This document shows, one piece after another, positions 1,852 through 13,222 of a stretch of 64,000 nt of DNA. The notes below the pieces were generated by a model, which saw nothing but the letters and a program-made list of their open reading frames with translations, was not told where the DNA came from and searched no databases. The translations under genes and the position numbers were made by a program. This DNA comes from an uncultured Tateyamaria sp. (GTDB lineage: Bacteria; Pseudomonadota; Alphaproteobacteria; Rhodobacterales; Rhodobacteraceae), in assembly GCF_947503385.1 (NCBI RefSeq), contig NZ_CANNDO010000002.1, positions 1-64,000 of the forward strand. Direction: 5' to 3'. Positions within the stretch are counted from its first letter, which is position 1. Every line of letters starts with the position of its first letter.

Positions 1852-1865
1852 TGGCGGACAGGAAG
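1852..1865. repeat. attL-type 14-bp direct repeat
   Basis: TGGCGGACAGGAAG, identical to 11907-11920. Read on the minus strand it is the last 14 nt of tRNA-Ser including CCA. The flanking bases differ on both sides, so the shared core is exactly 14 bp. It marks the host side of the island on the integrase-proximal end. Confidence 0.85.
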
Positions 1866-2005
1866 TACAAGTTTTTTTGATTTCACTCTTTTTCAGAGCC
1901 GTTCAATTTCGCTCTCTGTAACAAAAATTTTGTTGCAAAAACGGTAAGTTGCCGCCTTTTTCCCTTTCTATAGCGTTTCACAGTCGCTCAAGCTGTTTTT
2001 AAGCG

Positions 2006-2028
2006 AAAGCGTACCGAAAACGTACTGA
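2006..2028. promoter_or_regulatory. Candidate integrase arm-type sites, left end
   Basis: Two tandem near-copies, AAAGCGTACCGA and AAAACGTACTGA, lie 25 bp upstream of the integrase start. The same AAGCGTACC motif occurs twice at the other end of the island (11832-11853). Paired short repeats near both att cores are typical of integrase arm sites, and their position also allows autoregulation of int. This is inferred from sequence only. Confidence 0.5.
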
Positions 2029-2052
2029 ACTGAGGGGAAGGACTCGAACAAA

Positions 2053-3249
2053 GTGGCAAAGGTTTTGACAGCATTGCAGGTAAAGAACCTGCCAAAGGGA
2101 CAGCACACCATTGACCGTGGGCTACGGATGACGGCCAACGGCGATGGCACAGGCAAATGGCTGGCGCGCTATAAGTGGGGCGGTAAGGACAAGAGCATGG
2201 CACTGGGCGACTACCCGTACGTGTCGCTTGCCGATGCACGGGAGGCGCTGGCGGATGTTCGCGCCAAGGTGCGGCGTGGGATCGACCCGCGCAGCGAGAT
2301 TGAACAGGTGAAGGTTGCGGCCAAAGTTGCGGCGACCACGTTCAAGGAAGTGGCCGAACTGGCCGTGGCCGACTTCAAACCGACATGGAAGTGCGGCGGT
2401 GCAAAAAACGGGTTCATTCCAAAACTGCACGCCTACGTGTATCCAGCTATCGGCCACCTCGCCCTATCGGACATCAACGGCAAAGTGTTGGCCGACATGG
2501 TGCGGCACATGTGGCACGGCAAGCATCCAACAGCGCACAAGTGCCTCTTGCATACTGGCAAGATTTTGGATTGGGCAGATGCTGCGGAATACGACTGCGA
2601 TCCTTTAGCCGTCCGCCGCGCTCGCAAGCTACTCGGTAAAACGCGCCACACATCTACGCCTCAAAAGGCGCTGCATTGGACAGATGTGCCGGGGCATTAC
2701 CAGTCGTTGACGCATCTGACCATGCAGGGCCTTGCCGAAGCGTTTTATTTGCTGAACGCGCCGCGCGCTGGTGACGTTGTGACCGCCACATGGGACCAGA
2801 TAAGCAAGTGTGGGACGTTGTGGATCATCCCCGACACCAAGAACGGGCGGGAACACGTCGCACCGCTGAGTACGCAGGCGCAGGCGCTTTTGACCAAGGC
2901 CGACGCAATCTACAACGACCGCACGGGCTACATCTTTAAGAACCCGCACGCATGGAAAACCGGGCACGTCAGCTACAACAACTGGACGCAGTGGTATCGC
3001 CGAAACAACATCCAAGCGACGTCGCACGGTGCGCGGGGATCGTTCAAGACATGGGCGTCCGTGAACAAGGTCGAAGAAAACCAGATTATCGAGGAGTGCC
3101 TCATGCACGCCGTGCGACCGGCTCAAGAGCAAGTTTACTTGCGCGACCCTTTGACCGCGCGGCGACGCGTTATCATGCAAATGTGGGCCGATCTGCTAAG
3201 CGGTGACGCGTCGTCAAACGTTGTCCCGTTCGAACCCGTCGCCGTGTGA
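2053..3249 (+). CDS. int: Tyrosine recombinase, P4-type island integrase
   Basis: 398 residues starting at GTG, with GGGGAAGGA 11 bp upstream. The N-terminal part (about 1-80) is the arm-binding DUF4102 domain (RYKWGGKDKSMALGDYP, SLADAREA), followed by a SAM-like core-binding domain (about 95-190) and the catalytic domain. Candidate active-site residues are R238 (PRAGD), K263 (DTKNGREH), H325 and R328 (SHGARGSF), H352 (MHAVR) and the nucleophile Y362 (QVYLRDP). It should insert and excise the island at the tRNA-Ser 3' end. It sits at the end opposite the intact tRNA and is transcribed inward. The length is normal for the family. Confidence 0.92.
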   Translation: MAKVLTALQVKNLPKGQHTIDRGLRMTANGDGTGKWLARYKWGGKDKSMALGDYPYVSLADAREALADVRAKVRRGIDPRSEIEQVKVAAKVAATTFKEVAELAVADFKPTWKCGGAKNGFIPKLHAYVYPAIGHLALSDINGKVLADMVRHMWHGKHPTAHKCLLHTGKILDWADAAEYDCDPLAVRRARKLLGKTRHTSTPQKALHWTDVPGHYQSLTHLTMQGLAEAFYLLNAPRAGDVVTATWDQISKCGTLWIIPDTKNGREHVAPLSTQAQALLTKADAIYNDRTGYIFKNPHAWKTGHVSYNNWTQWYRRNNIQATSHGARGSFKTWASVNKVEENQIIEECLMHAVRPAQEQVYLRDPLTARRRVIMQMWADLLSGDASSNVVPFEPVAV

Positions 3250-3257
3250 TTCACTAG

Positions 3258-3282
3258 CGCGCCCCGCAAATTGTGGGGCGCG
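3258..3282. terminator. Hairpin after integrase
   Basis: A GC-rich stem (CGCCCCGC pairing with GTGGGGCG, 5-nt loop AAATT) begins 9 bp after the int stop codon. There is no T-run, so it may be a weak or factor-dependent terminator or an RNA-stabilising hairpin. Confidence 0.45.
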
Positions 3283-3432
3283 GTTGCACTTGGTGGTGTC
3301 AACAAAGGCCACCAAAACTCTGACTTTCCACAAAAATAATTTTGCCACCTTTATACCCGTTCGTTGTGCCTTGCGATGATCTGCCGTGTTCCTGTTTGCT
3401 TTGTGACGAAGCGAAAACAAACAAGGTGAAAC

Positions 3433-3642
3433 ATGACGCAAGTACCGCCAACCAACCCGCGCGAACCCGGAGACGTCCTTTGGAACCGGGGCGACACCCG
3501 CCAAGTGAATCCGGTTTCAAACGCGACGCACTGGCGGCATGTCAAACAAGGCATCCTGCCCGCGCCGACTGTCATTAACGGGCGAAATTATTGGTGGCGA
3601 TCTGAGTACATGGCAGCGTTGCGCAGTCAGGCCACCCAATGA
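3433..3642 (+). CDS. AlpA/excisionase-like small DNA-binding protein
   Basis: 69 residues. The segment HWRHVKQGILPAPTVINGR followed by NYWWRSEYMAAL (about 33-63) is the MerR-like winged-helix pattern of AlpA and excisionase proteins (xxGxLPxPxxx-GRxxxWxxSE). AAGGTG lies 6 bp before the ATG. In P4-like satellites and PICIs such a protein acts as excisionase or as activator of the island. Here it follows int and is closed by a strong terminator, so it forms its own transcript and may control both excision and the downstream genes. The fold call is good; the exact role is inferred. Confidence 0.65.
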   Translation: MTQVPPTNPREPGDVLWNRGDTRQVNPVSNATHWRHVKQGILPAPTVINGRNYWWRSEYMAALRSQATQ

Positions 3643-3680
3643 AAAACCCCTGCCGCTGGGTGAAGCGGCAGGGGTTTCTT
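3643..3680 (+). terminator. Strong intrinsic terminator after the AlpA-like gene
   Basis: A 13-bp perfect stem (AAACCCCTGCCGC pairing with GCGGCAGGGGTTT, 8-nt loop) ends in TTTCTT on the plus strand and has A-rich sequence on the other side, so it may work in both directions. It insulates the int/AlpA part from the replication and head genes. Confidence 0.85.
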
Positions 3681-3719
3681 ATGAGAGCGCGGGCGCTGCA
3701 GACGACCGCTTGCGCAAGC

Positions 3720-3746
3720 ACAACATACCGTTTCGCTCGGTGTTGT
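3720..3746. promoter_or_regulatory. Inverted repeat upstream of rep-like gene
   Basis: ACAACA and CCG arms pair with CGG and TGTTGT around a 7-bp centre (a 2-bp TA bulge sits in the left arm). It lies 20 bp before the ATG of the replication-initiator-like gene, the place for an operator or a replication iteron-like site. No family is recognised. Confidence 0.45.
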
Positions 3747-3765
3747 CAAAACTGAGAGTACCCAA

Positions 3766-4728
3766 ATGAAAAAACGACAAATCAAAGGTCACTTTGGGCG
3801 TGTTGGGTTGAGCGTTTTACGAGATCCGCGCATCAAGCTAAGGCATCTCAAATTGCTACTATACGTGTCCGCTCAGGCCGATGATTTTGACGGATACAAG
3901 CGCGAGACGATTGCGAATGAAGCTGGCTTGGGGAGTCCTTCGCGGGTGTCCGAGGCGCTCGGCGAATTGCAGGACATGGGGTACGTTTCATCTGCCATTC
4001 GCACATACAAAAGCGGCTGGCGTCGTGGTCTTTCGATCCGATTAACGGATGCATTCTTTGATGATGACAGACCTACCCCAAACGCGGACGTCAGAGGTCC
4101 AGATTTAGGGGAGGTCAAGAGGTCCGCAAATGGGGTAGGTCATGACGTCCGCAAATTGGGTAGGTCAATAAAGGATACTACAAAATACAATCATCATAAT
4201 ACAGGCGCGCAAGCGCGCGAGGATGATGATTTTGCAGAATTGGAAGAGTCCGACCTGCAACCGTCTCACCCAGACTGGTCACCCCCGAACTCATGGCAAG
4301 CATTCGCTCATGGCGAAGGTCTGACGTCAGAGCGCGTGTCGGAATTGACGGTGCGTTTTGTTGAGTGGGCAGGACGTGCCAAACGGCCAGAACAAAATTG
4401 GCGCAAGACGTGGGCGAGCTTTGTGCAGCGTGAAGCTGGCGATCTGACGGACCAAGATCGACTAGACGCGCAAAGCCAATTAGCCCCCATCCTGTCGCCG
4501 TGCGCTTGTTTCTATCGGTACAAGGGCGAGTCGTACTGGACTGGCAGCTATTTTGAGTATGCCGAAAGCAACGGGCTTGCTGACGACCGAATTGCACTTG
4601 AACAGGAAAAACGCACGGCGTGGTTACTTGAACGGTTCCCCGATCTCGATCTACGTCCGCCGATCAACATGGATGATGCACAGGGCCGCATATATGCGCA
4701 CTACATCGCGCAAGCACGTACCACATGA
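3766..4728 (+). CDS. Replication-initiator-like protein with N-terminal winged helix
   Basis: 320 residues. The N-terminal region (about 8-90: FGRVGLSVLRDPRIKLRHLKLLLYVS, then ANEAGLGSPSRVSEALGELQDMGYV) is a winged-helix DNA-binding domain like those of phage and plasmid replication proteins. The middle (about 100-170) is polar and low in structure; the C-terminal half (SWQAFAHGEGLTSERVSELTVRFVEW, then NWRKTWASFV) resembles the tail of phage O-type or RepA-like initiators. The position after the regulator is the usual place for a satellite rep gene. The stop overlaps a following ATGA. No helicase or primase motif is seen, so a DNA-binding initiator is inferred, not proven. Confidence 0.55.
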   Translation: MKKRQIKGHFGRVGLSVLRDPRIKLRHLKLLLYVSAQADDFDGYKRETIANEAGLGSPSRVSEALGELQDMGYVSSAIRTYKSGWRRGLSIRLTDAFFDDDRPTPNADVRGPDLGEVKRSANGVGHDVRKLGRSIKDTTKYNHHNTGAQAREDDDFAELEESDLQPSHPDWSPPNSWQAFAHGEGLTSERVSELTVRFVEWAGRAKRPEQNWRKTWASFVQREAGDLTDQDRLDAQSQLAPILSPCACFYRYKGESYWTGSYFEYAESNGLADDRIALEQEKRTAWLLERFPDLDLRPPINMDDAQGRIYAHYIAQARTT

Positions 4729-5163
4729 CCGCCGCCGATCTAGACCGCCAAGCGGCGTGTCTGGATCGTGGCGGCGCAGACGGCATGTCAGCGGCGTCTG
4801 GCGGACGAATATGACAGCGCGAAGGAAGATGGGCGCATGGCAAAGGGGCGCCCCAAAAGTCCCCAAGGTCCGGGGACTTTTCAAGGCACCACGTCCAGCG
4901 CCGGATTGTCCAGCCAACGCCTGTCAGAAGCGCGCAAGGTCCGGGATGCGGAAGAAGCGCCAAATATTGTTACGTCAACGCCATGAACGCAACAAAAGAC
5001 GCCAGATGGCGCGCTTTCTGACCTTGCCCGCCTTTGGTGCGTCTCGGAACGTCTGATCCAGCGCGCCAGTCGGCCCGTCACTGCAAGTGTCAACAAAACC
5101 AGCAACGGGCCACCCCGATCCGTCCAACCACGAATCGAGGCGATCCAAACTGTATCACTTTGA
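4725..5163 (+). pseudogene. Degraded ParB-like/HTH phage gene with frameshift and in-frame stop
   Basis: ATG at 4725 overlaps the previous stop but gives only 29 codons (MTAADLDRQ...). In another frame, from about 4768, the translation QRRLADEYDSAKEDG, then SSQRLSEARKVRDAEE, matches a domain common in ParB-like or replication-regulator phage proteins. That frame ends at a TGA (4984-4986) yet continues open with DGALSDLARLWCVSERLIQ, a clear helix-turn-helix pattern, to 5163. The simplest reading is one gene broken by a frameshift near 4760-4800 and a nonsense codon. Separate expression of a 49-residue piece from ATG 4837 is possible. Neither end has a good ribosome site. Confidence 0.45.
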
Positions 5164-5166
5164 TAC
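5152..5166. promoter_or_regulatory. Perfect palindrome GTATCA-CTT-TGATAC
   Basis: A 15-bp operator-like palindrome just before the next small gene. Its half-site TTTGATACCA recurs at 6128-6137 and, as TTTGATAGCA, at 6090-6099 in the divergent promoter region, suggesting one regulator for several island promoters. Confidence 0.45.
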
Positions 5167-5182
5167 CAAACGCCAAATTGAG

Positions 5183-5605
5183 ATGACCGATTCACACCAT
5201 TGCGCCCCCGGTGTATGTTTATGCGACATCAGGCGGGGGCCGAAAATGACCAGACGCGCGCTGCAACAGGGGCCACAAGCCCGCAAAGACGATCCGGCTA
5301 CCCAACCAACACTGCGCGACCTACTGGCCATGAGAGGCGCGCTTTTGTGGACCTGCAAAAGGGCGGCACCATCGCCCGCGATCGAGGTGACCATTGCCGA
5401 CGCGTTGGGACGAAAATGGACCTGCCACTGGGATGGTCAAACACATACGTGGCTAAGCTGTTCGACACGTCCATGTCAGCAAGCAACGCGTCGTGTTTTG
5501 GATGGTCTGTTTTTGCGGTGGCCGCGTGATCGTCTGGACAATGACGATTGGCGGGGAATCGGGCAACCGCTGATGTATCGCGGGCAATGGCAGTCGGGCG
5601 ACTGA
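5183..5605 (+). CDS. Hypothetical island protein, Cys-containing
   Basis: 140 residues from the ATG at 5183 (MTDSHHCAPGVCLCD); the frame is open further upstream to 5087. It has several cysteines (CAPGVCLCD, WTCKR, WTCHW, LSCSTRPC), which may bind a metal, and a C-terminal part rich in Trp, Arg and Asp. I do not recognise a family. Another frame (5200-5529) is also open, and the start lacks a clear ribosome site. It lies downstream of the palindrome at 5152 and before a hairpin at 5644, which supports a short transcription unit. Confidence 0.4.
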   Translation: MTDSHHCAPGVCLCDIRRGPKMTRRALQQGPQARKDDPATQPTLRDLLAMRGALLWTCKRAAPSPAIEVTIADALGRKWTCHWDGQTHTWLSCSTRPCQQATRRVLDGLFLRWPRDRLDNDDWRGIGQPLMYRGQWQSGD

Positions 5606-5643
5606 TCCGAATCGCATGGGGGTGCGCGGCGATCTAAATGAAC

Positions 5644-5671
5644 GGCCCCGACAAGCGTCATTGCCGGGGCC
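5644..5671. terminator. Hairpin between two convergent small island genes
   Basis: GGCCCCG pairs with CGGGGCC around a 14-nt loop. It lies 38 bp after the rightward gene ending at 5605 and 135 bp beyond the leftward gene ending at 5806. There is no strong T-run on either strand. I see no coding signal in the rest of 5606-5805. Confidence 0.4.
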
Positions 5672-5805
5672 TGATCTACCCGCGCGAAAGGATAGCGCGC
5701 TGATCTTGTCGGTGTTCTGAGGCGACGTCTCCGACTATCTCCCCCACTGTTTCGGCAACCGGCTTTCGCCACCGAAGCCCAAGGACCGCGTGGGCCGGTC
5801 CCTGA

Positions 5806-6078
5806 TTACAAAAACTTGCGGTAGTGCCCGTGCACGTTGACGTCCGGATCGTCGTTACGAACGTAGAGCGTGAACCCCACCGGAATCTCATCGTGCGTCA
5901 CCCGGTCCCGTTGTTGCAGGATGTGATAGGCCGCGTGGTCATCCGCAGGCAAAGCGTCGGCAATGGCAACGCGCAAATGCCCATATGCGTGGTCATTGGC
6001 CAAGGTCAGAGTGGTCGCACCGCCACCTAGTGGCATGTAACTGCCCGATGCTGTAAATTTGACGATCTCATCAGCCAT
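5806..6078 (-). CDS. Hypothetical island protein, only leftward gene in the element
   Basis: 90 residues: MADEIVKFTASGSYMPLGGG, a hydrophobic-polar middle with LRVAIADALPADDHAAYHIL, and a C-terminal beta-like part ending HGHYRKFL. AAGAGAG lies about 7 bp before the ATG, a good ribosome site. It is transcribed away from the head operon across a 91-bp divergent promoter region. No family is recognised. Position and small size suit a satellite accessory, for example one that redirects packaging or regulates the helper, but that is speculation. Confidence 0.55.
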   Translation of the reverse strand: MADEIVKFTASGSYMPLGGGATTLTLANDHAYGHLRVAIADALPADDHAAYHILQQRDRVTHDEIPVGFTLYVRNDDPDVNVHGHYRKFL

Positions 6079-6169
6079 TTTGCACTCTCTTTGATAGCAA
6101 TATTAATGGGTTACGCGTTTACACTCATTTGATACCATATGTGTCAATTCTTTTACACGGTTTTGGCGC
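6079..6169. promoter_or_regulatory. Divergent control region of the head operon
   Basis: This AT-richer 91-bp stretch separates the leftward 90-residue gene from the rightward head operon. It holds TTTGATAGCA (6090) and TTTGATACCA (6128), plus two copies of TTTACAC about 30 bp apart. These repeats look like binding sites for an island or helper regulator. No clean -35/-10 pair could be assigned. Confidence 0.45.
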
Positions 6170-6700
6170 ATGCATATCATCAGAGGCGACATCAAGGCGG
6201 CGGTATCGCTGGACGACATCAAGGCTGTCGGGCGCGTTGAGCATGATGAGGACGACACCATGTTGGCCCTATTGGCGGCGTCTGTGACGTCTGAGTATTG
6301 CCAGCGCCTCAACATTGCGCTGCTGCCTGAGACCATCACTGTGACGTTCGACACGTGGCTGTGCAATGTGCCTTTGCGCCTGCCCATTGGCCCGCTGTCA
6401 GAGGCTAACGCAGCGACACTGACGGCAAGCCAGACGATTGAGACGATGCAGGCAATAGCGCCGATTGACCTGACAACGCGTCATGGCGAGCGCCCCACGC
6501 TGACTGTGAACGCGTTGCCACAAGGCCCGCTGGTGGTCACCTACACCGCAGGCTTGCCCGCTGCACCGCAACACGTGCGCGCCGCGCTGGCCATGCAGGT
6601 GATGCATCAAGTGGACGCTCAGGACGTCGAGACACAGTCACGCCGCTATTCGCCTGCCTTTGCCGCTGCACTCAACACACGCAAACGCGTGTCAATTTAG
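6170..6700 (+). CDS. Phage gp6-like head-tail connector protein
   Basis: 176 residues. The N-terminal pattern (AAVSLDDIKAVGRVEHDEDDTMLALLAASVTSE as two short runs, about 10-45) and the late helix VRAALAMQVMHQVD (about 137-150) match the HK97 gp6-like family of head-tail connectors ('phage_connect_1/DNA packaging' proteins). These form the ring below the portal to which a tail can dock. It is the first gene of the head operon, placed before the terminase rather than after the capsid as in most tailed phages. In a cf-PICI it would be the interface to helper tails. Confidence 0.65.
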   Translation: MHIIRGDIKAAVSLDDIKAVGRVEHDEDDTMLALLAASVTSEYCQRLNIALLPETITVTFDTWLCNVPLRLPIGPLSEANAATLTASQTIETMQAIAPIDLTTRHGERPTLTVNALPQGPLVVTYTAGLPAAPQHVRAALAMQVMHQVDAQDVETQSRRYSPAFAAALNTRKRVSI

Positions 6701-6712
6701 GGCGGTTTTCCA

Positions 6713-6802
6713 ATGTCTTACCCCTCACATGGTCCCAATGCCCGCTCTCTCTCGCGGACCCCCTGCCGCCTGGCCAACTTACGCGCTCGCAATAGCCGGT
6801 GA
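6713..6802 (+). CDS. Small basic ORF coupled to terminase
   Basis: 29 residues, rich in Arg, Ser and Pro (MSYPSHGPNARSLSRTPCRL...). AGGGCGG lies about 9 bp before the ATG, and the TGA stop overlaps the GTG start of terL, so at the least it can act as a leader that delivers ribosomes to terL. It is too short to be a normal small terminase. No family is recognised. Confidence 0.35.
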   Translation: MSYPSHGPNARSLSRTPCRLANLRARNSR

Positions 6803-8325
6803 AAAAAGTGGCAAATGACGCAACAAAATGCATTCGCTTCATCGAGGGTGATTTGAAAATCCCCGAAGGGCCAAAAGCTGGTCAGCTGATGAAACTTGCG
6901 CCGTTCCAACGCAAATTTATCCGGGGTGCCCTTGGTTCTGACATTCGAATTGCGTGCCTGTCCGTGGGCCGTGGTGCCGCCAAAACTGCGCTGTCGTCGG
7001 CTATTGCTTTGGCTGCTTTCCTTGGCGTGTTCGATCCACAGCCTAACCGTGACGTTGTCATTGCAGCACGGACCCGAGATCAAGGCGCTATCGCATTCCA
7101 ATTCGTGCTCGGATTCCTGCGTTCGTTGCCCGAGGAACTGCAAAAGACGGTAAAAATCCGGCGTGCGCCGCGTCTGGAATTAGAGATCGAAACAGAGACG
7201 GGCCGCCACATTCTACGCGTGATCGCGTCAGACGGCATGACGGCACTCGGATCTTCGCCGACGTTCGTTCTTATGGACGAACGCGGTCACTGGGACGGCG
7301 TCAAAGGTGATGATCTAGAGGCCGCATTGCTGTCGGGTCTGGGCAAACGTGCGGGCCGCGCTCTGATTATCAGCACGTCAGCACGTGACGACGCGCACCC
7401 GTTTTCGATCTGGCTGGACAATCCCGGACCCGGTATTTTCATTCAAGAACACCGCCCACTGCCGGGGTTGCCTGCGGACGATCCGGACTCGCTGAAAGAG
7501 GCGAACCCCGGTGCCGAACACGGTATCGGTTCAAGTCTGGAATGGCTGCAAAGTGAGGCCAAGCGCGCCATTGCACGGGGCGGGCAAACTCTCATAAGTT
7601 TCCGCTTGTACAACCGCAATGAACGCGTCAGCGCCGAAGCCCGCGACGTCCTGCTAACGACTGACGAATGGTTGGCGTGCGAAGTGGACGAATTGCCGCC
7701 GCGTTCTGGTGACGTGGTGGTAGGGATTGATCTGGGCGGTTCTGCGTCCATGTCTGGTGTCGCGTTTTACTGGCCCGACACATCGCGCCTTGAAGCTTAT
7801 GGCACCTTCCCCGGCTTGCCGTCGCTGGAGTCCCGTGGCGAGGCGGACGGCGTCAAAGGCCGTTACGTCGAAATGCACTTGCGTGGCGAACTCAATCAAA
7901 TCGGTAAAAGCACTGTGCCTGTCGCTGATTGGTTGCGCAAAATCATCTCTCAAATTGACGGCGAAAAAATCGCGGCCCTAGTGGCTGATGGATATAAAAA
8001 AGCGGAAATTTCAGAAGCGCTTGTAGCAACTGGATTCCGCTGCCCGATCATTTGGCGGCGTATGGTGTGGCAGGAAGCAAGCGAAGACTGTGATCGTTTT
8101 CGCCGCGCTGCGTTCGACGGCGAAATTGCCTGTGACCCTTCCCTGTTAATGCGTTCCGCGCTGGCCGATGCCGTCGTACTCACCGATGCAAGTGGCAACA
8201 TCAAAATCGCAAAAGGCCGCTCTACAGGCCGGATTGACGCGCTGGCTGCTGCCGTTTTGGCAGTCGCACAAGGTGCTCGGATCAAGAACGGTGCAGTCAA
8301 AAAATCGCGCGTGGTGTGGGCATGA
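6799..8325 (+). CDS. Terminase large subunit (TerL)
   Basis: 508 residues from a GTG start. The N-terminal ATPase has the Walker A variant SVGRGAAKTA (K62), Walker B FVLMDERGHW (D160, E161) and the coupling-type segment IISTSARDD. The C-terminal RNase H-like nuclease has GIDLGG (D311), VADGYKK and a final GRIDALAAA (D480). This is the DNA-packaging motor and cutter of HK97-type phages. All catalytic residues seem present and the length is normal, so packaging should be functional. No clear small terminase is visible upstream; in cf-PICIs the island normally supplies its own TerS, so its absence or unrecognised form here is worth noting. Confidence 0.9.
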   Translation: MKKVANDATKCIRFIEGDLKIPEGPKAGQLMKLAPFQRKFIRGALGSDIRIACLSVGRGAAKTALSSAIALAAFLGVFDPQPNRDVVIAARTRDQGAIAFQFVLGFLRSLPEELQKTVKIRRAPRLELEIETETGRHILRVIASDGMTALGSSPTFVLMDERGHWDGVKGDDLEAALLSGLGKRAGRALIISTSARDDAHPFSIWLDNPGPGIFIQEHRPLPGLPADDPDSLKEANPGAEHGIGSSLEWLQSEAKRAIARGGQTLISFRLYNRNERVSAEARDVLLTTDEWLACEVDELPPRSGDVVVGIDLGGSASMSGVAFYWPDTSRLEAYGTFPGLPSLESRGEADGVKGRYVEMHLRGELNQIGKSTVPVADWLRKIISQIDGEKIAALVADGYKKAEISEALVATGFRCPIIWRRMVWQEASEDCDRFRRAAFDGEIACDPSLLMRSALADAVVLTDASGNIKIAKGRSTGRIDALAAAVLAVAQGARIKNGAVKKSRVVWA

Positions 8326-8642
8326 CAACGCGTCGTCAGGAACACAAACGGCATTCCGCCAAAGTCACCAGCACCAAACGGTGGGCCGTTCTGCGCCTCA
8401 AAATCATGGAACGCGACGAGTGGCGCTGCGTCAAATGTGGCGATTTTCGCCGCCTTGAAGTGGATCACATTGAACCCGTTCGAACGCACCCCGAACTGTC
8501 GTTTGATCCGGCAAATTTACAGACGCTTTGTCGTGTCTGTCATTCCGAAAAAACCCGTCACGAGGTGGGCTTTCGACCAATTTCCCAAGATCGCCAAGAC
8601 TGGCGGCAACTACTAAAAAAAGAGGCAAAAACACATGCTTGA
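8322..8642 (+). CDS. HNH endonuclease of the packaging module
   Basis: 106 residues from ATG 8322, which overlaps the terL stop (ATGA); an in-frame GTG at 8316 is possible. Zinc ligands C36-C39 (CVKCG) and C70-C73 (CRVC) frame the HNH core LEVDHIEPV (H49) with N65 and H74 (CHSEKT). Such HNH proteins sit next to TerL in many HK97-type phages and are needed for cos cleavage with the terminase. The tight coupling to terL supports that role rather than that of a homing endonuclease. Confidence 0.9.
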   Translation: MTTRRQEHKRHSAKVTSTKRWAVLRLKIMERDEWRCVKCGDFRRLEVDHIEPVRTHPELSFDPANLQTLCRVCHSEKTRHEVGFRPISQDRQDWRQLLKKEAKTHA

Positions 8643-9879
8643 ATCTGCAAAAATCATGCGCCGTCAGTCTGAGATTCGTTCTCAATTGTCGGAACTCGTC
8701 GGCAAAGAGACCACCGACGACGAAACGCGCCAGATTGACACTCTGGACGCCGAATATCGTGCAAACGAAACCAAATACCGGGGCGCTTTGATTGTCGAGG
8801 CGTCCGAACGTGACGCGGCGTCTGCCGAACTCGAAAACCGCTCTGCCGACGAGTGGCAGGGCCTTATTGACAACTTTGAACTGCGTCAGGTGGTGGCCAA
8901 TCTGGACACGGGCGCAGCTATCAGTGGTCAAACTGCCGAAGTCGTAACCGAAATGCGTGCGCAAGGTTCATTTCAAGGTCAGCCCATCCCTTGGGGCGCG
9001 CTGGAGCGTCGTGCGGGCGAAACTACCAGCGCAACCACGCCTGATCCGACGCGCACCATGCCGCTTGTTGACCGCTTGTTTCCTACCTCAGTGGCGGCGC
9101 AATTGGGGGCGTCTTTGGTGCAGGTAGGCCAAGGTTCGCTTGAATATCCGGTGTCCACGGCAAGCACGGTTGCAAGCTGGCAAACGGACGAAGTCACTGA
9201 CCTGCCGGACCCGGTTCCCTTCACCACGGCTGACGCGAAACTGTCGCCTGATTTTGCCCTTGGCGTCCGCATGAAAATCACGCGCAAGGCGTTGAAACAA
9301 AGCGGCGAAGGTCTCGAGTCTGCAATCCGTCGCGACATGAATGGCGCGATGCAAATGGAACTGGATCGCTCTTTGATCCTTGGCAGCGGTGCCGCTGGTG
9401 AGCCTCTGGGCATTATCCCCGGCGCGGCCACATACGGGATCAACGTTAACAACCTTGGCGCGGCGGCCACGTGGGCGGCGTTCCGGACTGAGGTGCTTGC
9501 ATTCATGGTGGGCAATGCTGCAAGCGGCCCCGGTTCGGTTCGCGCGCTGATCCGGCCCGAAGTTTGGGACCGCATGGACGGTTCGTACATCACGGGCACC
9601 GCTGTTACCGAATTCGAATTGATGCGCAAAGCCATGCTTGGCGTGATCATGACCACCAACGCCCTTGAAGCGCCTGCGGGTGGTGAAACAACTGCCGTAC
9701 TGGCGACGTCGGCAGGTGGCCTGCCACCTATCCACATCGGCGCGTGGGGCGGTATCGACCTGATCCGCGACCCGTACACCGACGCCGCGTCTGGCCAACT
9801 GCGCCTTACCGCTATCGCGACCATGGACCAGACGGTTGCCCGTGGCGCGCAACTGCGGATCGTAGAGGGTATTCAGTAA
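8635..9879 (+). CDS. Major capsid protein, HK97 fold
   Basis: 414 residues; the ATG lies inside the end of the HNH gene. The N-terminal ~100 residues are charged and helical (MRRQSEIRSQLSELVGKE, then EASERDAASAELENR), like the scaffolding delta domain that the prohead protease removes. The rest has HK97-fold marks: TTSATTPDPTRTMPLVDRLF, GSLEYPVST, LDRSLILGSGAAGEPLGI, IRPEVWDRM and a C-terminal GGIDLIRDPYT with TAIATMDQTVARG. The length is normal. The capsid gene precedes the protease and portal, the reverse of the usual phage order. Confidence 0.92.
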   Translation: MLESAKIMRRQSEIRSQLSELVGKETTDDETRQIDTLDAEYRANETKYRGALIVEASERDAASAELENRSADEWQGLIDNFELRQVVANLDTGAAISGQTAEVVTEMRAQGSFQGQPIPWGALERRAGETTSATTPDPTRTMPLVDRLFPTSVAAQLGASLVQVGQGSLEYPVSTASTVASWQTDEVTDLPDPVPFTTADAKLSPDFALGVRMKITRKALKQSGEGLESAIRRDMNGAMQMELDRSLILGSGAAGEPLGIIPGAATYGINVNNLGAAATWAAFRTEVLAFMVGNAASGPGSVRALIRPEVWDRMDGSYITGTAVTEFELMRKAMLGVIMTTNALEAPAGGETTAVLATSAGGLPPIHIGAWGGIDLIRDPYTDAASGQLRLTAIATMDQTVARGAQLRIVEGIQ

Positions 9880-9880
9880 C

Positions 9881-10438
9881 ATGCTTGAAGGACGCGCGGC
9901 GGGGGCCGTTGAGACGCGTTTCGCGTTCGACGGGTCCGCCATTATCGAGGGTGTTTTTCCCTATGGCGAACGCGCCTCTTTTGGCGCTGATCGTTTTGAA
10001 ACTTTCGCACCGGGTGCGTTCGCCGACTCGGTGCAAAGTGAGGCCGATATTCATTTTGTGTGGCAACACGACATGGGCAAACCGCTGGCCTCACGTGCTG
10101 GCGGTTCGCTGACACTTAACGATGCTGGCAACGCGTTGCGATTTGAGGCGCGTATCTCTGCCGATCATATGGCAATTGGCTTTGTAAAGGACGCGGTGGC
10201 CGCCATGCAGACCAGCTTGGTCAAGGGCTTGTCACCCGGTTTCCGCGTTTCATCGGCCAAAGATCAGGTGGTTACGCGTGAGGGTAATAACGTCCTGCGC
10301 ACCATCAAACGCGCCGAACTGATCGAACTATCGGCGGTGACAAAGGGTGCGTATCCCTATGGGCAGGTGCAAGCCCGCAACTGGACGCCTGAACCGTCCG
10401 CCCGGTCGGTGCATGTCCTGTCGAGGTGGCGCGCATGA
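9881..10438 (+). CDS. HK97-type prohead protease
   Basis: 185 residues, starting one base after the capsid stop. The N-terminal barrel (EGVFPYGERASFGADRFETF, FAPGAFADS) and the catalytic candidates H63 (VWQHDMGKPLAS) and S118 (VKGLSPGFR) match peptidase family U35/S78-like prohead proteases, as does AELIELSAVTKGAYP. It should cleave the capsid delta domain during maturation. The length fits the family, and the gene is locked between capsid and portal by a 1-bp gap and an ATGA overlap. Confidence 0.88.
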   Translation: MLEGRAAGAVETRFAFDGSAIIEGVFPYGERASFGADRFETFAPGAFADSVQSEADIHFVWQHDMGKPLASRAGGSLTLNDAGNALRFEARISADHMAIGFVKDAVAAMQTSLVKGLSPGFRVSSAKDQVVTREGNNVLRTIKRAELIELSAVTKGAYPYGQVQARNWTPEPSARSVHVLSRWRA

Positions 10439-11487
10439 TCTGGCCCTTTAAGCGAAAGCCTGTCGAAAATCGGGCATCGGCCACGGGCTACACGGCAAGC
10501 TTGATGGCGGCGCGTGCTGCCCTGATCACGGGGCGTGAGGGCATTGGCGAACTCACCAGCGCTGCGCAGTCGTGCGTCAGTTTATGGGAAGGCGGATTGA
10601 GCCTTGCGGACGTGAACGGCACGGACCTACTCACGCCGCCCATGCTGGCCCTTGTGGCCCGTTCTCTGGCATTGCGTGGGGAGTTTCTGGCCTTGATCCG
10701 GGAGGACGGACTTGTGGCTTGTCACGAGTGGGACGTCAGCACTCGGAACGGACGGCCAGTCGCCTATCGCGCGTCTGTAGCGGACACCGGCGGCGGCTAC
10801 ACAGTCACGGCCCTTGCCCCTGAGGTGATCCACGTGGTGACGGGTGCCCAGACAACAACGCCCTATGTCGGCACTCCACCTCTACGCCGTGCGGCTCTGT
10901 CGGCTGGTCTCGCCAATGCCGTAGAATCGGCCCTTTCAGACGTCTATCAGACGGCCCCTATCGGCAGTCAAATCGTGCCCATGCCCGAGGCCCAAGTGGA
11001 TGATCTGACGGCGCTGCGGGAAGGCTTCAAGGGCCGCCGTGGTTCCGTCTTGGTTGTCGAGGGCGTGGCACAAGCTACCGCCGCCGGTGCCTATCCTGAT
11101 CTGTTCAAACAGGCCACGGATTTGACGCCGAATTTGCAGCGTCTTGAGTCGTCTCAGGCTATCAAAGAGGCCCGCAATGCTATCGAATCCGTCTTTGGCG
11201 TTCTGCCTGCTCTACAGAACCCCGCCGCGACGGGGCCGGTTGTCAGGGAAGCGCAACGACACCTTGGGCAGTGGACATTGCAACCGCTTGCCAAGCTGGT
11301 GGCGCATGAGTGTTCTGCCAAGCTGGAGTCGCCGGTGACGCTGGACGTCATGCGCCCACTTCAAGCGTACGACTCGGGCGGACGTGCACGCACTGTCACG
11401 GCGCTGGTGCAGGCCATGGCGGCGGCTAAGGAGTCGGGCGTGGATGTAGAACGGGCGTTTGATCTGGTCGATTGGGGGCAGCAATGA
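10435..11487 (+). CDS. Phage portal protein, HK97 family
   Basis: 350 residues from ATG 10435 (MIWPFKRKPVENRA), which overlaps the protease stop; a GTG at 10426 would add MAR. Portal marks are the MAARAALITGREGIGELTSAAQSC helix (two pieces), PPMLALVARSLALRGEFLALI, LTPNLQRLESSQAIKEARNAI and the late helix QAMAAAKESGVDVERAFDLV. It is somewhat shorter than typical HK97 portals (about 400 or more residues), lacking part of the N-terminal and clip regions, which could reflect a satellite-adapted capsid. The call rests on overall pattern and position between protease and end genes. Confidence 0.8.
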   Translation: MIWPFKRKPVENRASATGYTASLMAARAALITGREGIGELTSAAQSCVSLWEGGLSLADVNGTDLLTPPMLALVARSLALRGEFLALIREDGLVACHEWDVSTRNGRPVAYRASVADTGGGYTVTALAPEVIHVVTGAQTTTPYVGTPPLRRAALSAGLANAVESALSDVYQTAPIGSQIVPMPEAQVDDLTALREGFKGRRGSVLVVEGVAQATAAGAYPDLFKQATDLTPNLQRLESSQAIKEARNAIESVFGVLPALQNPAATGPVVREAQRHLGQWTLQPLAKLVAHECSAKLESPVTLDVMRPLQAYDSGGRARTVTALVQAMAAAKESGVDVERAFDLVDWGQQ

Positions 11488-11741
11488 GTGGTGCCCTTGC
11501 CGACATGATGAATAGCGAATTCGCTCATGGTGAGCCTGTCTATGACGTGGTGTGGCTGAGCAACTTGGACGCTTGGGAGTGGTATAGCATCCCCGGCCCT
11601 GATCTGTTCCGCCACGCCGAAGGGTTCGGCATTCCGGAACGTGACGTGCAAGCTGTCGAGATTGACGGCGTTTGGCATATCCGCCTAAGCGAACCGTTGG
11701 CGCATGGGTACGGCGTGTACAGGCGGGCTTGCGATGGGTGA
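11484..11741 (+). CDS. Hypothetical small protein after portal
   Basis: 85 residues from ATG 11484 (MSGALADMMNSEFAHGEPVYD), overlapping the portal stop. It is acidic and rich in Trp and Tyr (VVWLSNLDAWEWYSIPG, VWHIRLSEPLAHGYGVYR). The placement suggests a head-completion or adaptor role, but I recognise no family. The ATGA coupling on both sides shows that it belongs to the head operon. Confidence 0.6.
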   Translation: MSGALADMMNSEFAHGEPVYDVVWLSNLDAWEWYSIPGPDLFRHAEGFGIPERDVQAVEIDGVWHIRLSEPLAHGYGVYRRACDG

Positions 11742-11799
11742 GTCGGGGGTGTTCTGGGCGCTGGTGTGCTTGGCGGCTTGGGCGGCTTTGCTGGTGTAG
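11734..11799 (+). CDS. Micro-ORF, 21-residue single membrane segment
   Basis: The ATG overlaps the previous stop by the same coupling seen through the operon. The product MGESGVFWALVCLAAWAALL is one hydrophobic helix. It could be a membrane-active peptide or chance. It is the last possible gene before the right attachment region, and it is the only candidate in the island for a holin-like function. Confidence 0.3.
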   Translation: MGESGVFWALVCLAAWAALLV

Positions 11800-11831
11800 G
11801 CTGACGCAACGTCATTGTCCCAGCAAATTCA

Positions 11832-11853
11832 AAAGCGTACCAGAAGCGTACCA
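11832..11853. promoter_or_regulatory. Candidate integrase arm-type sites, right end
   Basis: Two adjacent direct copies, AAAGCGTACCA and GAAGCGTACCA, 54 bp inside the right att core. They match the pair at 2006-2028 near the left core. The rest of 11800-11906 is AT-rich without coding signal. Confidence 0.55.
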
Positions 11854-11906
11854 AGGTCCACTAGAGACCTTTAAATATCTGTTTTTATTTCATATTTTTT
11901 GTTGAA

Positions 11907-11920
11907 TGGCGGACAGGAAG
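11907..11920. repeat. attR-type 14-bp direct repeat
   Basis: Identical to 1852-1865. It equals the final 14 nt of tRNA-Ser, from the acceptor stem through CCA, so insertion leaves the tRNA gene whole. Confidence 0.85.
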
Positions 11921-11996
11921 GGATTCGAACCCTCGAGACGGTCTCCCGCCTACGCACTTTCCAGGCGCGCGCCTTCGACCACTCGGCCACCTGTCC
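11907..11996 (-). tRNA. tRNA-Ser (anticodon GGA)
   Basis: 90 nt including an encoded CCA. The acceptor stem GGACAGG pairs with CCTGTCC, with discriminator G. A long variable arm follows the anticodon loop CTGGAAA, and the T arm contains GGTTCGAATCC. These are class II tRNA features, and the anticodon GGA reads UCC/UCU. It serves as the insertion site of the island, with its 3' end facing the element. Confidence 0.95.
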
Positions 11997-12499: not shown

Positions 12500-13222
12500 T
12501 CAAAACCCATCCAGATGCAGGTAGACGCGGCGGTTGCGGCGCCCTTTCTTTTCGATCTTGCCCAGACGCAGCCCGCCGATCTCGCCCGTGCGTGCCACAT
12601 GGGTGCCGCCGCAGGGTTGCAGGTCGATGGCGTTCGTGTCGCCGCCGATGCGGATCAGGCGAATGCGCCCTGCCCCCCGCGGCGGTTGCACCGACAGCGT
12701 TTTGACGAGCGCGGGATTGGCATCCAGCTCTTCTTCGCTGATCCAGTCTTCGGTAACTTTGTGATCCGCCTCGACCTGCGCGTTCAGAGCCGTTTCGATA
12801 GCGTCGCGGTCTTCGGGAGCGTCTTCCATATCGAAATCGAGCCGGCCGCGACCGGCGCTGATCGCGCCCCCGGTGACGCCAAAGGGCATGGCCACGGACA
12901 AAAGGTGCAGCGCCGTGTGGACGCGCATATGGGCATAGCGGCGATCCCAGTCGAGGGATTGTTCGACCTGCGCACCTGCGGGCGGCAGCGCGCGCGGTTC
13001 GGAGGGGACCAGCACAACCGTGTCGCCGTCGCCTTTTACGGCGGTGGCGATGGTCAGCGCGTTGCCGCCCCATGTGATGCGGCCACTGTCGCCGGGCTGG
13101 CCCCCACCAGTGGGGTAAAAAACTGTCTGATCCAGAATGATGCCACCTTCGTCCGTGTGACCGATGACTGTGGCCACCGCATCACGAGCATAGGCATCAT
13201 CACGAAAGAGCATGTGGGTCAT
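12500..13222 (-). CDS. alaX: Alanyl-tRNA editing protein AlaX-type
   Basis: 240 residues homologous to the editing domain of AlaRS: FYPTGGGQPGDSG near the N terminus, H102 and H106 (HTALH), and C204 and H208 (CGGTH) as the zinc/catalytic set. It hydrolyses Ser-tRNA(Ala) and so protects against misacylation. The ATG overlaps the stop of the MscS gene (ATGA), so it is in the same operon. All four ligands are present, so activity is expected. Confidence 0.92.
   Translation of the reverse strand: MTHMLFRDDAYARDAVATVIGHTDEGGIILDQTVFYPTGGGQPGDSGRITWGGNALTIATAVKGDGDTVVLVPSEPRALPPAGAQVEQSLDWDRRYAHMRVHTALHLLSVAMPFGVTGGAISAGRGRLDFDMEDAPEDRDAIETALNAQVEADHKVTEDWISEEELDANPALVKTLSVQPPRGAGRIRLIRIGGDTNAIDLQPCGGTHVARTGEIGGLRLGKIEKKGRRNRRVYLHLDGF

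What the first reader, a model, noticed from the sequence alone, without database searches (positions are those of the whole stretch)
1852..11920. Candidate capsid-forming phage satellite (cf-PICI) in a marine roseobacter
A 10.07-kb element with perfect ends has integrase, AlpA-like regulator, rep-like gene and a full head/packaging set (connector, TerL, HNH, capsid, protease, portal), but no tail, lysis, repressor or holin gene. This matches capsid-forming PICIs described in enterobacteria and other hosts, which make their own small capsids and borrow tails. The TerL and protease active sites and zinc ligands are intact, arguing for function. Several genes (90-aa leftward gene, 140-aa Cys protein, 85-aa end gene) are unrecognised and could be new hijack factors.
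Basis: partly seen in the sequence, partly recalled or inferred. Interest (0 to 1): 0.88.

Follow-up and report, generated by a model that had tools for sequence, protein, structure and literature searches.

The report
Head-making, tail-less phage satellite family
This is a 10-kb DNA island that carries genes for its own virus head but none recognised for a tail; it belongs to a large family, found almost only in one bacterial family, that probably borrows tails from ordinary phages.

Summary
The element is real: 10,069 bp between 14-bp repeats, one at the 3' end of tRNA-Ser, with integrase, head/packaging genes (TerL, HNH, capsid, protease, portal, adaptor) and no recognised tail gene. One same-genus genome shows the empty site. 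It is not a lone prophage remnant: 40 of 394 genomes of its family carry this TerL type; 31 elements with both ends found span 9.3-12.1 kb (mean 10.4), mostly at tRNA or tmRNA genes, and 144 IMG/VR contigs are of this type. Head genes are under purifying selection (median dN/dS 0.08-0.17). Their TerLs form one clade far from the phages and the one E. coli capsid-forming satellite tested. It works like a cf-PICI, but looks like a separate lineage, with several cf-PICI traits not found. New here: the neck comes in two mutually exclusive types. Adaptor type divides the portal tree exactly (1 change, 108 dereplicated elements), while capsid and terminase trees need 16 and 9 changes: portal and adaptor travel together, heads are exchanged. 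Closure proteins of the two types resemble two siphophage groups, suggesting different helpers. Excision, packaging and tail capture are untested.

The parts
1852..1865 (+). attL, 14-bp repeat
   Evidence: identical to 11907-11920; empty site in G1043
2053..3249 (+). tyrosine integrase, 398 aa
   Evidence: PF13356, PF22022, phrog_1
3433..3642 (+). AlpA/excisionase-like regulator, 69 aa (weak)
   Evidence: phrog_66 E 0.0012; clusters with genes of 9 relatives
3766..4728 (+). replication-initiator-like protein, 320 aa (weak)
   Evidence: phrog_270 E 9e-5
4768..4986 (+). small ORF, 72 aa, unknown
   Evidence: phrog_799 E 0.0014 only
5183..5605 (+). 140-aa Cys-containing ORF, orphan
   Evidence: no PHROG, Pfam best 0.011; no relative among 469 element proteins
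5806..6078 (-). 90-aa leftward ORF, orphan
   Evidence: no family; no relative in 198 genomes; single-sequence model pLDDT 63, mostly strands
6170..6700 (+). head-tail adaptor, type B (gp6-like), 176 aa
   Evidence: phrog_442 2.5e-11; C09 profile 2e-50
6799..8325 (+). large terminase (conserved from about 6820)
   Evidence: phrog_9 1e-62; 40 of 394 family genomes
8316..8642 (+). HNH endonuclease
   Evidence: PF01844 1.4e-10, phrog_144
8635..9879 (+). HK97-fold major capsid protein, 414 aa
   Evidence: PF05065 8.8e-12
9881..10438 (+). S78 prohead protease
   Evidence: PF04586 1.2e-22
10426..11487 (+). portal protein, short (about 350 aa), type-B side of the portal tree
   Evidence: PF04860 1.2e-10; portal trees
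11472..11741 (+). 85-89-aa end ORF, orphan
   Evidence: no family; no relative among 469 element proteins
11907..11920 (+). attR, 14-bp repeat inside the tRNA 3' end
11907..11996 (-). tRNA-Ser(GGA), host gene kept intact
   Evidence: ARAGORN

Best explanation
A capsid-forming phage satellite. Shown from sequence: it sits at the 3' end of tRNA-Ser as an integrase-bearing island and encodes an HK97-type head (capsid, protease, portal), its own large terminase and HNH nuclease, and its own head-tail adaptor, but no recognised tail or lysis gene; relatives keep this design under purifying selection at about 10 kb. Inferred: a helper siphophage triggers excision and replication; the element's terminase fills small heads with the ~10-kb genome (volume scaling from HK97 suggests about T=3, my estimate); adaptor and, where present, closure seal the head and present it to helper tails; helper lysis releases chimeric particles that inject and integrate. 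Portal plus adaptor act as an inherited neck unit with two alternative types, each probably matched to a different kind of helper tail.
Against: No excised circle or packaged DNA of an integrating member was found: the two closed contigs (L154, L268) show no tyrosine-integrase match and look plasmid-like. No closure profile hit and no small terminase in the window element. Helper unknown. The tail search is not exhaustive: it flagged only 5 of 14 control records, missing the second resident element and several phage-like loci. The PHROG and Pfam scans of 143 accessory proteins list only 25 of 132 and 25 of 58 families; PF04883 (gp10-like, 'putative tail-component') is in 2 members, one of them probably the L063 protein that PHROGs calls Neck1. 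PHROGs calls one 86-aa protein in two relatives 'tail fiber', though NCBIfam calls it a spike base. AlpA and rep calls are weak.
Confidence: 0.8

Rival explanations
1. Decaying prophage that lost tail and lysis genes.
For: Head genes are HK97-type; a survey of Rhodobacteraceae prophages reports a taller length peak at 10-15 kb that its high/medium-quality set does not show (passages of PMC8224337).
Against: Same five-gene block and ~10-kb size in elements at different sites; purifying selection; no TerL match between 48% and 35% identity in the genome scans.
Confidence: 0.05
2. Satellite that uses the tail of the host's gene transfer agent (GTA) rather than a phage tail.
Against: The window's own adaptor did not match the GTA one at E<=1e-3. 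Closure proteins are nearer phages: C13 to Paracoccus phage Shpa (48.5%; hhalign 99.7% against 93.8% for the GTA protein) and C11 to YuA-type M6 (38.7%; hhalign 98.8%). A Labrenzia phage adaptor matches C09 about as well (97.3%) and a sewage record, itself like a GTA, better (98.9%). Recalled: GTA DNA enters via competence proteins, ill-suited to a circularising island.
Confidence: 0.08
3. A complete minimal phage with its own unrecognised very short tail.
For: Several accessory ORFs per element are unassigned.
Against: Neck parts (gp6-type adaptor, Hc1 closure) are those used to attach long tails (role recalled); outside the core and neck no gene cluster is shared by most members, as a tail would have to be (by a gene caller that misses small genes); the longest ORFs without any match were 270 and 250 aa.
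Confidence: 0.05

Closest known systems
cf-PICI of E. coli O157:H7 EDL933 (EcCIEDL933; NZ_CP008957 1680329-1694760, identified by recall and gene content, L074)
   Same: Integrase, HTH regulator, capsid, S78 protease, portal, adaptor, HNH, TerL; no tail or lysis gene annotated
   Different: Order there is capsid-protease-portal-closure-connector-HNH-TerS-TerL, here adaptor-TerL-HNH-capsid-protease-portal; has TerS, SSB and a DUF927 protein; TerL 21% identical, capsid no hit; apart in the TerL tree; about 14.4 against 10 kb
cf-PISP satellite-plasmids of Vibrio (PMC13230959, passages and one section read)
   Same: Own head, packaging and neck genes, no tail; the two circular IMG/VR contigs of this family, without a detected integrase, are alike in lifestyle
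   Different: 15.8 kb, found in Vibrio only and capsid grouped with gammaproteobacterial cf-PICIs, per that paper
HK97-type siphophages of Alphaproteobacteria (Paracoccus phages Shpa and Pthi1, Rhizobium phage 16-3)
   Same: Same protein families; C13 closure 48.5% identical to Shpa
   Different: Tailed, 38-60 kb; best-ranked TerL in the phage collection 27% identical
RcGTA-like gene transfer agents
   Same: Adaptor fold and B-type adaptor sequence; spike-base protein in a few members
   Different: GTA has tails, no integrase and packages host DNA (recalled)

Membership tests
cf-PICI | Own capsid, protease, portal, terminase, HNH and adaptor | tested here: met
cf-PICI | No tail and no lysis genes | tested here: met
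   window genes; tail set: (moderate sensitivity, 5 of 14 controls); lysis judged from family scans only
cf-PICI | Integrase and specific att site | tested here: met
cf-PICI | alpA regulator | tested here: inconclusive
   phrog_66 E 0.0012 in the window; PF05930 in 4 of 143 scanned accessory proteins of relatives
cf-PICI | Pri-Rep replication gene | tested here: inconclusive
   only a weak initiator-like match in the window; helicase/primase genes in some relatives
cf-PICI | Small terminase | tested here: inconclusive
   none recognised in the window
cf-PICI | Stl-like regulator | tested here: inconclusive
   none recognised in the window; no Stl profile was run
cf-PICI | Head genes fall with those of the E. 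coli cf-PICI | tested here: not met
   TerL apart, 100/100; capsid no BLASTP hit. Only one published cf-PICI was compared
cf-PICI | Induced by a helper and packaged with helper tails | not testable with these tools
   needs experiment
Gene transfer agent | Full head-tail cluster, no mobility genes | tested here: not met
   integrase and att present, no tail hit
Intact prophage | Tail and lysis modules | tested here: not met

The most novel reading that the evidence does not exclude
These islands are satellites of gene transfer agents: they make their own heads and portal-adaptor necks to fit the host's own domesticated GTA tail, so a bacterial DNA-exchange machine is itself parasitised by a selfish island.
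Probability: 0.07. Interest if true: 0.93.

Novelty: new variant of a known kind. Interest (0 to 1): 0.72.

Why it matters
[quoted passage not shown] Part of it is filed in IMG/VR as short viral contigs, and it may explain the 10-15 kb peak of low-quality prophages in PMC8224337 (inference). The exact match between portal side and adaptor type, against free exchange of heads, gives a sequence signature for how such satellites may choose or change helpers, and it can be tested with cultivable strains. No paper on these elements turned up in ten searches of the held library (listings capped). The Cell Host Microbe 2023 and NAR 2023 satellite papers and Eppley 2022 were not held, so prior mention there cannot be excluded.

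Tried and rejected
Prophage remnant: rejected on size, selection and distribution. Tail fibre: PHROG label phrog_12296 in L035 and L063 traced to an 83-87-aa protein that NCBIfam names spike base. Excised circles as proof of mobility: only 2 of 149 IMG/VR loci have terminal repeats; both lack a tyrosine-integrase profile hit and a match to the tRNAs of the genome loci, so they are not counted as excised islands. Empty site: of 8 congener stretches, only G1043 (L123) shows the left flanking gene; in the other 7 that gene is not in the stretch taken and the match is little more than the tRNA itself, so they say nothing. Window capsid alone as query found nothing in IMG/VR; alignments did. Iterated closure and HNH profiles mixed with each other and were replaced by single-pass profiles for adaptors, closures and neck; only integrase positions are used. 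The home-made gene caller misses genes (lost the window's AlpA-like and HNH genes). Orphan 90-aa protein: single-sequence model pLDDT 63, no conclusion. Foldseek gave no PDB match at E<=0.001 for the type-A adaptor; its best rows are neck proteins at E 0.005-0.05, and the viral library gave 11 at E<=0.001. Three IMG/VR loci (L277-L279, capsid 29-30%) have phage tail hits and are left out of the satellite count (149 to 146), and L231 and L258 are second loci of contigs already held (146 to 144). att repeats for L035, L036 and L044 were picked by hand because they lie at the tmRNA, tRNA or serC-leader end although other repeats of equal or greater length existed. L046 has no repeat of 13 or more at its tmRNA and was not counted; eight other loci lack one end at contig edges. 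PADLOC was not run.
Full report
Observation. The window holds a 10,069-bp element at 1852-11920 bounded by the 14-bp repeat TGGCGGACAGGAAG. This is the only pair in the window, with about 0.0005 copies expected by chance. The right copy is the 3' end of tRNA-Ser(GGA), which stays intact. Element G+C is 0.577, against 0.614 for the window to its right. In G1043, a genome of the same genus, the gene left of the element (hisD by my reading), tRNA-Ser and the gene at 12500-13222 follow one another without the island (L123). The other 7 congener stretches taken do not reach the left gene and are uninformative. Only 2 of 20 genomes of the genus, own included, carry this TerL type.

Gene content. Pfam and PHROGs identify integrase, TerL, HNH, HK97-type capsid, S78 protease, portal and head-tail adaptor. 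AlpA-like and rep-like calls are weak. The 72-, 81-, 140-, 90- and 85-aa ORFs have no convincing family. The 90-aa protein has no relative in 198 family genomes, own copy aside.

Not a remnant: a family. A TerL search at E<=1e-30 hits 41 of 394 genomes of the host's family. One (G118) has only a 29%-identical phage-like TerL, leaving 40, own included, whose matches are 48-68% identical (own 100%), some of them fragments. Of 385 genomes drawn from the class, one outside the family (G670) has it at 58%; the other matches at E<=1e-20 are 28-35%. Of 299 drawn from the phylum, the three at 61% or more lie in the same family. The genome-contig scan gave one locus, a Maritimibacter MAG. I took 40 neighbourhoods; L070 and L071 are phage-like. 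Of the other 38 plus L001, 36 of 39 show TerL-HNH-capsid-protease-portal in that order, and three (L047, L057, L061) end at contig edges. Repeats at both ends were found for 31 elements, window included: 9,317-12,085 bp, mean 10,434, SD 573; the longest carries a transposase. Sites are tRNA-Asn, Arg, Ser, Glu, Cys, Phe, Leu, Thr and Lys, tmRNA (2), and in three genomes the serC leader (RF00517); for L001 and L060 the repeat looks like tRNA but no intact tRNA was called there.

No tails found. Tail proteins from eight phages and the resident GTA-like cluster were searched against 189 records. Five had hits: three are phage-type contigs drawn in by the capsid scan (L277-L279), and two match a protein annotated tail completion or Neck1. 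So 0 of 186 satellite-type records (184 distinct) had a tail-tube, tape-measure or tail-fibre hit at E<=1e-4. The same set flagged only 5 of 14 control records, so sensitivity is moderate. Among the genes called in the genome elements, the longest outside core and integrase were primase, helicase, transposase, topoisomerase or rep-like, and those without any match were 270 and 250 aa or shorter. Among the 25 of 132 PHROG families listed for 143 accessory proteins, the one tail label ('tail fiber') is a spike-base protein by NCBIfam.

Selection and abundance. Alignments of TerL and capsid found 445 and 481 relatives in IMG/VR; only the best 80 of each were kept, 149 loci from 147 contigs. Of the 149, 117 hold all five core genes. 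Among 139 loci not cut by the flank limit the commonest length is 10-11 kb (29) and the longest 14 kb; the ten cut ones come from contigs of 12.4-25.9 kb. Independent close pairs give median dN/dS of 0.084 (TerL, 43 pairs), 0.149 (capsid, 40), 0.172 (protease, 30), 0.118 (portal, 24) and 0.154 (HNH, 29). Two contigs are closed circles of 9,923 and 9,970 bp without a tyrosine-integrase match; one has a protein with a sub-threshold RepL match and a T5orf172 protein, so plasmid-like members may exist. Some IMG/VR contigs come from isolate genomes and may repeat elements of the genome set.

Relation to known satellites. The TerL tree puts 41 satellite rows on one side of a very long branch (3.18 changes per site on their side of the midpoint root, 100/100), and HK97, Rhizobium phage 16-3, a Klebsiella phage, other alphaproteobacterial elements and the EDL933 satellite on the other. 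The bootstrap had not settled, the program warns of long branches, and only one published cf-PICI is included. Against the EDL933 element, TerL is 21% identical (E 2e-7), protease 29% (E 2e-11), HNH 38% over 47 aa, capsid no hit. A review passage says capsid trees show three radiations of cfPICI (PMC11389934, passages); this may be another one or fall in one of those three.

Portal and adaptor co-inherit, heads do not. With 36 labelled elements the adaptor label needs 1 change on the portal tree (support 99), 6 on the capsid tree (at least 4 forced by well-supported branches) and 5 on TerL (at least 3). One-clade trees are rejected for capsid (p 2e-39) and TerL (p 2e-85). With 126 labelled rows it is 1, 16 and 9; after dereplication at 95%, 108 labelled rows give 1 (support 91), 16 (at least 11 forced) and 9 (at least 7). 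These larger trees are FastTree trees with some weak branches. Direction is unknown: necks may move between heads or heads between necks. On the circle, portal and the type-B adaptor lie on the same non-core side, so one exchange could carry both.

Mechanism. Most likely a cf-PICI-like life cycle with its own ~10-kb head and borrowed siphophage tails, type A and B necks fitting different helpers. The host has other elements it might meet: a GTA-like cluster, a further capsid locus on C2, and a second head-encoding element on C6. Helper identity, induction, packaging and tail capture are inferred. The GTA-tail reading is not excluded, but closure proteins argue for phages.

Noticed in passing
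G000:C6 about 155180-171160 (L105, L106): A second ~16-kb head-encoding element in the same genome at tRNA-Ser(CGA): a 14-bp repeat at the tRNA end (one of two 14-bp pairs found), integrase 39% identical to the window's, portal and protease-capsid fusion closer to the EDL933 satellite than to HK97, no TerL or tail hit, and a 775-aa NACHT-domain protein as possible cargo.
   Followed up: partly
L044, L045, L063: Elements of this family sit at the serC leader RNA (RF00517) rather than at a tRNA.
   Followed up: partly
L035:10711-10959, L063:5077-5337, and L145: Some satellites carry an RCAP_Rcc01079-family spike base protein, which PHROGs labels tail fiber; satellite heads may bear GTA-like head spikes (L145 by profile only).
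   Followed up: partly
L154, L268 (IMG/VR): Closed circles of 9.9-10.0 kb with the same head block but no tyrosine-integrase match: possible satellite-plasmids.
   Followed up: partly
L084, L085, L087, L088: Other alphaproteobacterial loci hold head genes in further orders (L088 with a primase-like match to the EDL933 one); possibly more unrelated head-making satellites. Of these four only L084 hit the tail set.
   Followed up: no
window, L032-L069: Integrase lies at the end away from the tRNA in the ten elements at Asn, Ser and Lys sites, and at the portal-side end in the others where it was found.
   Followed up: no
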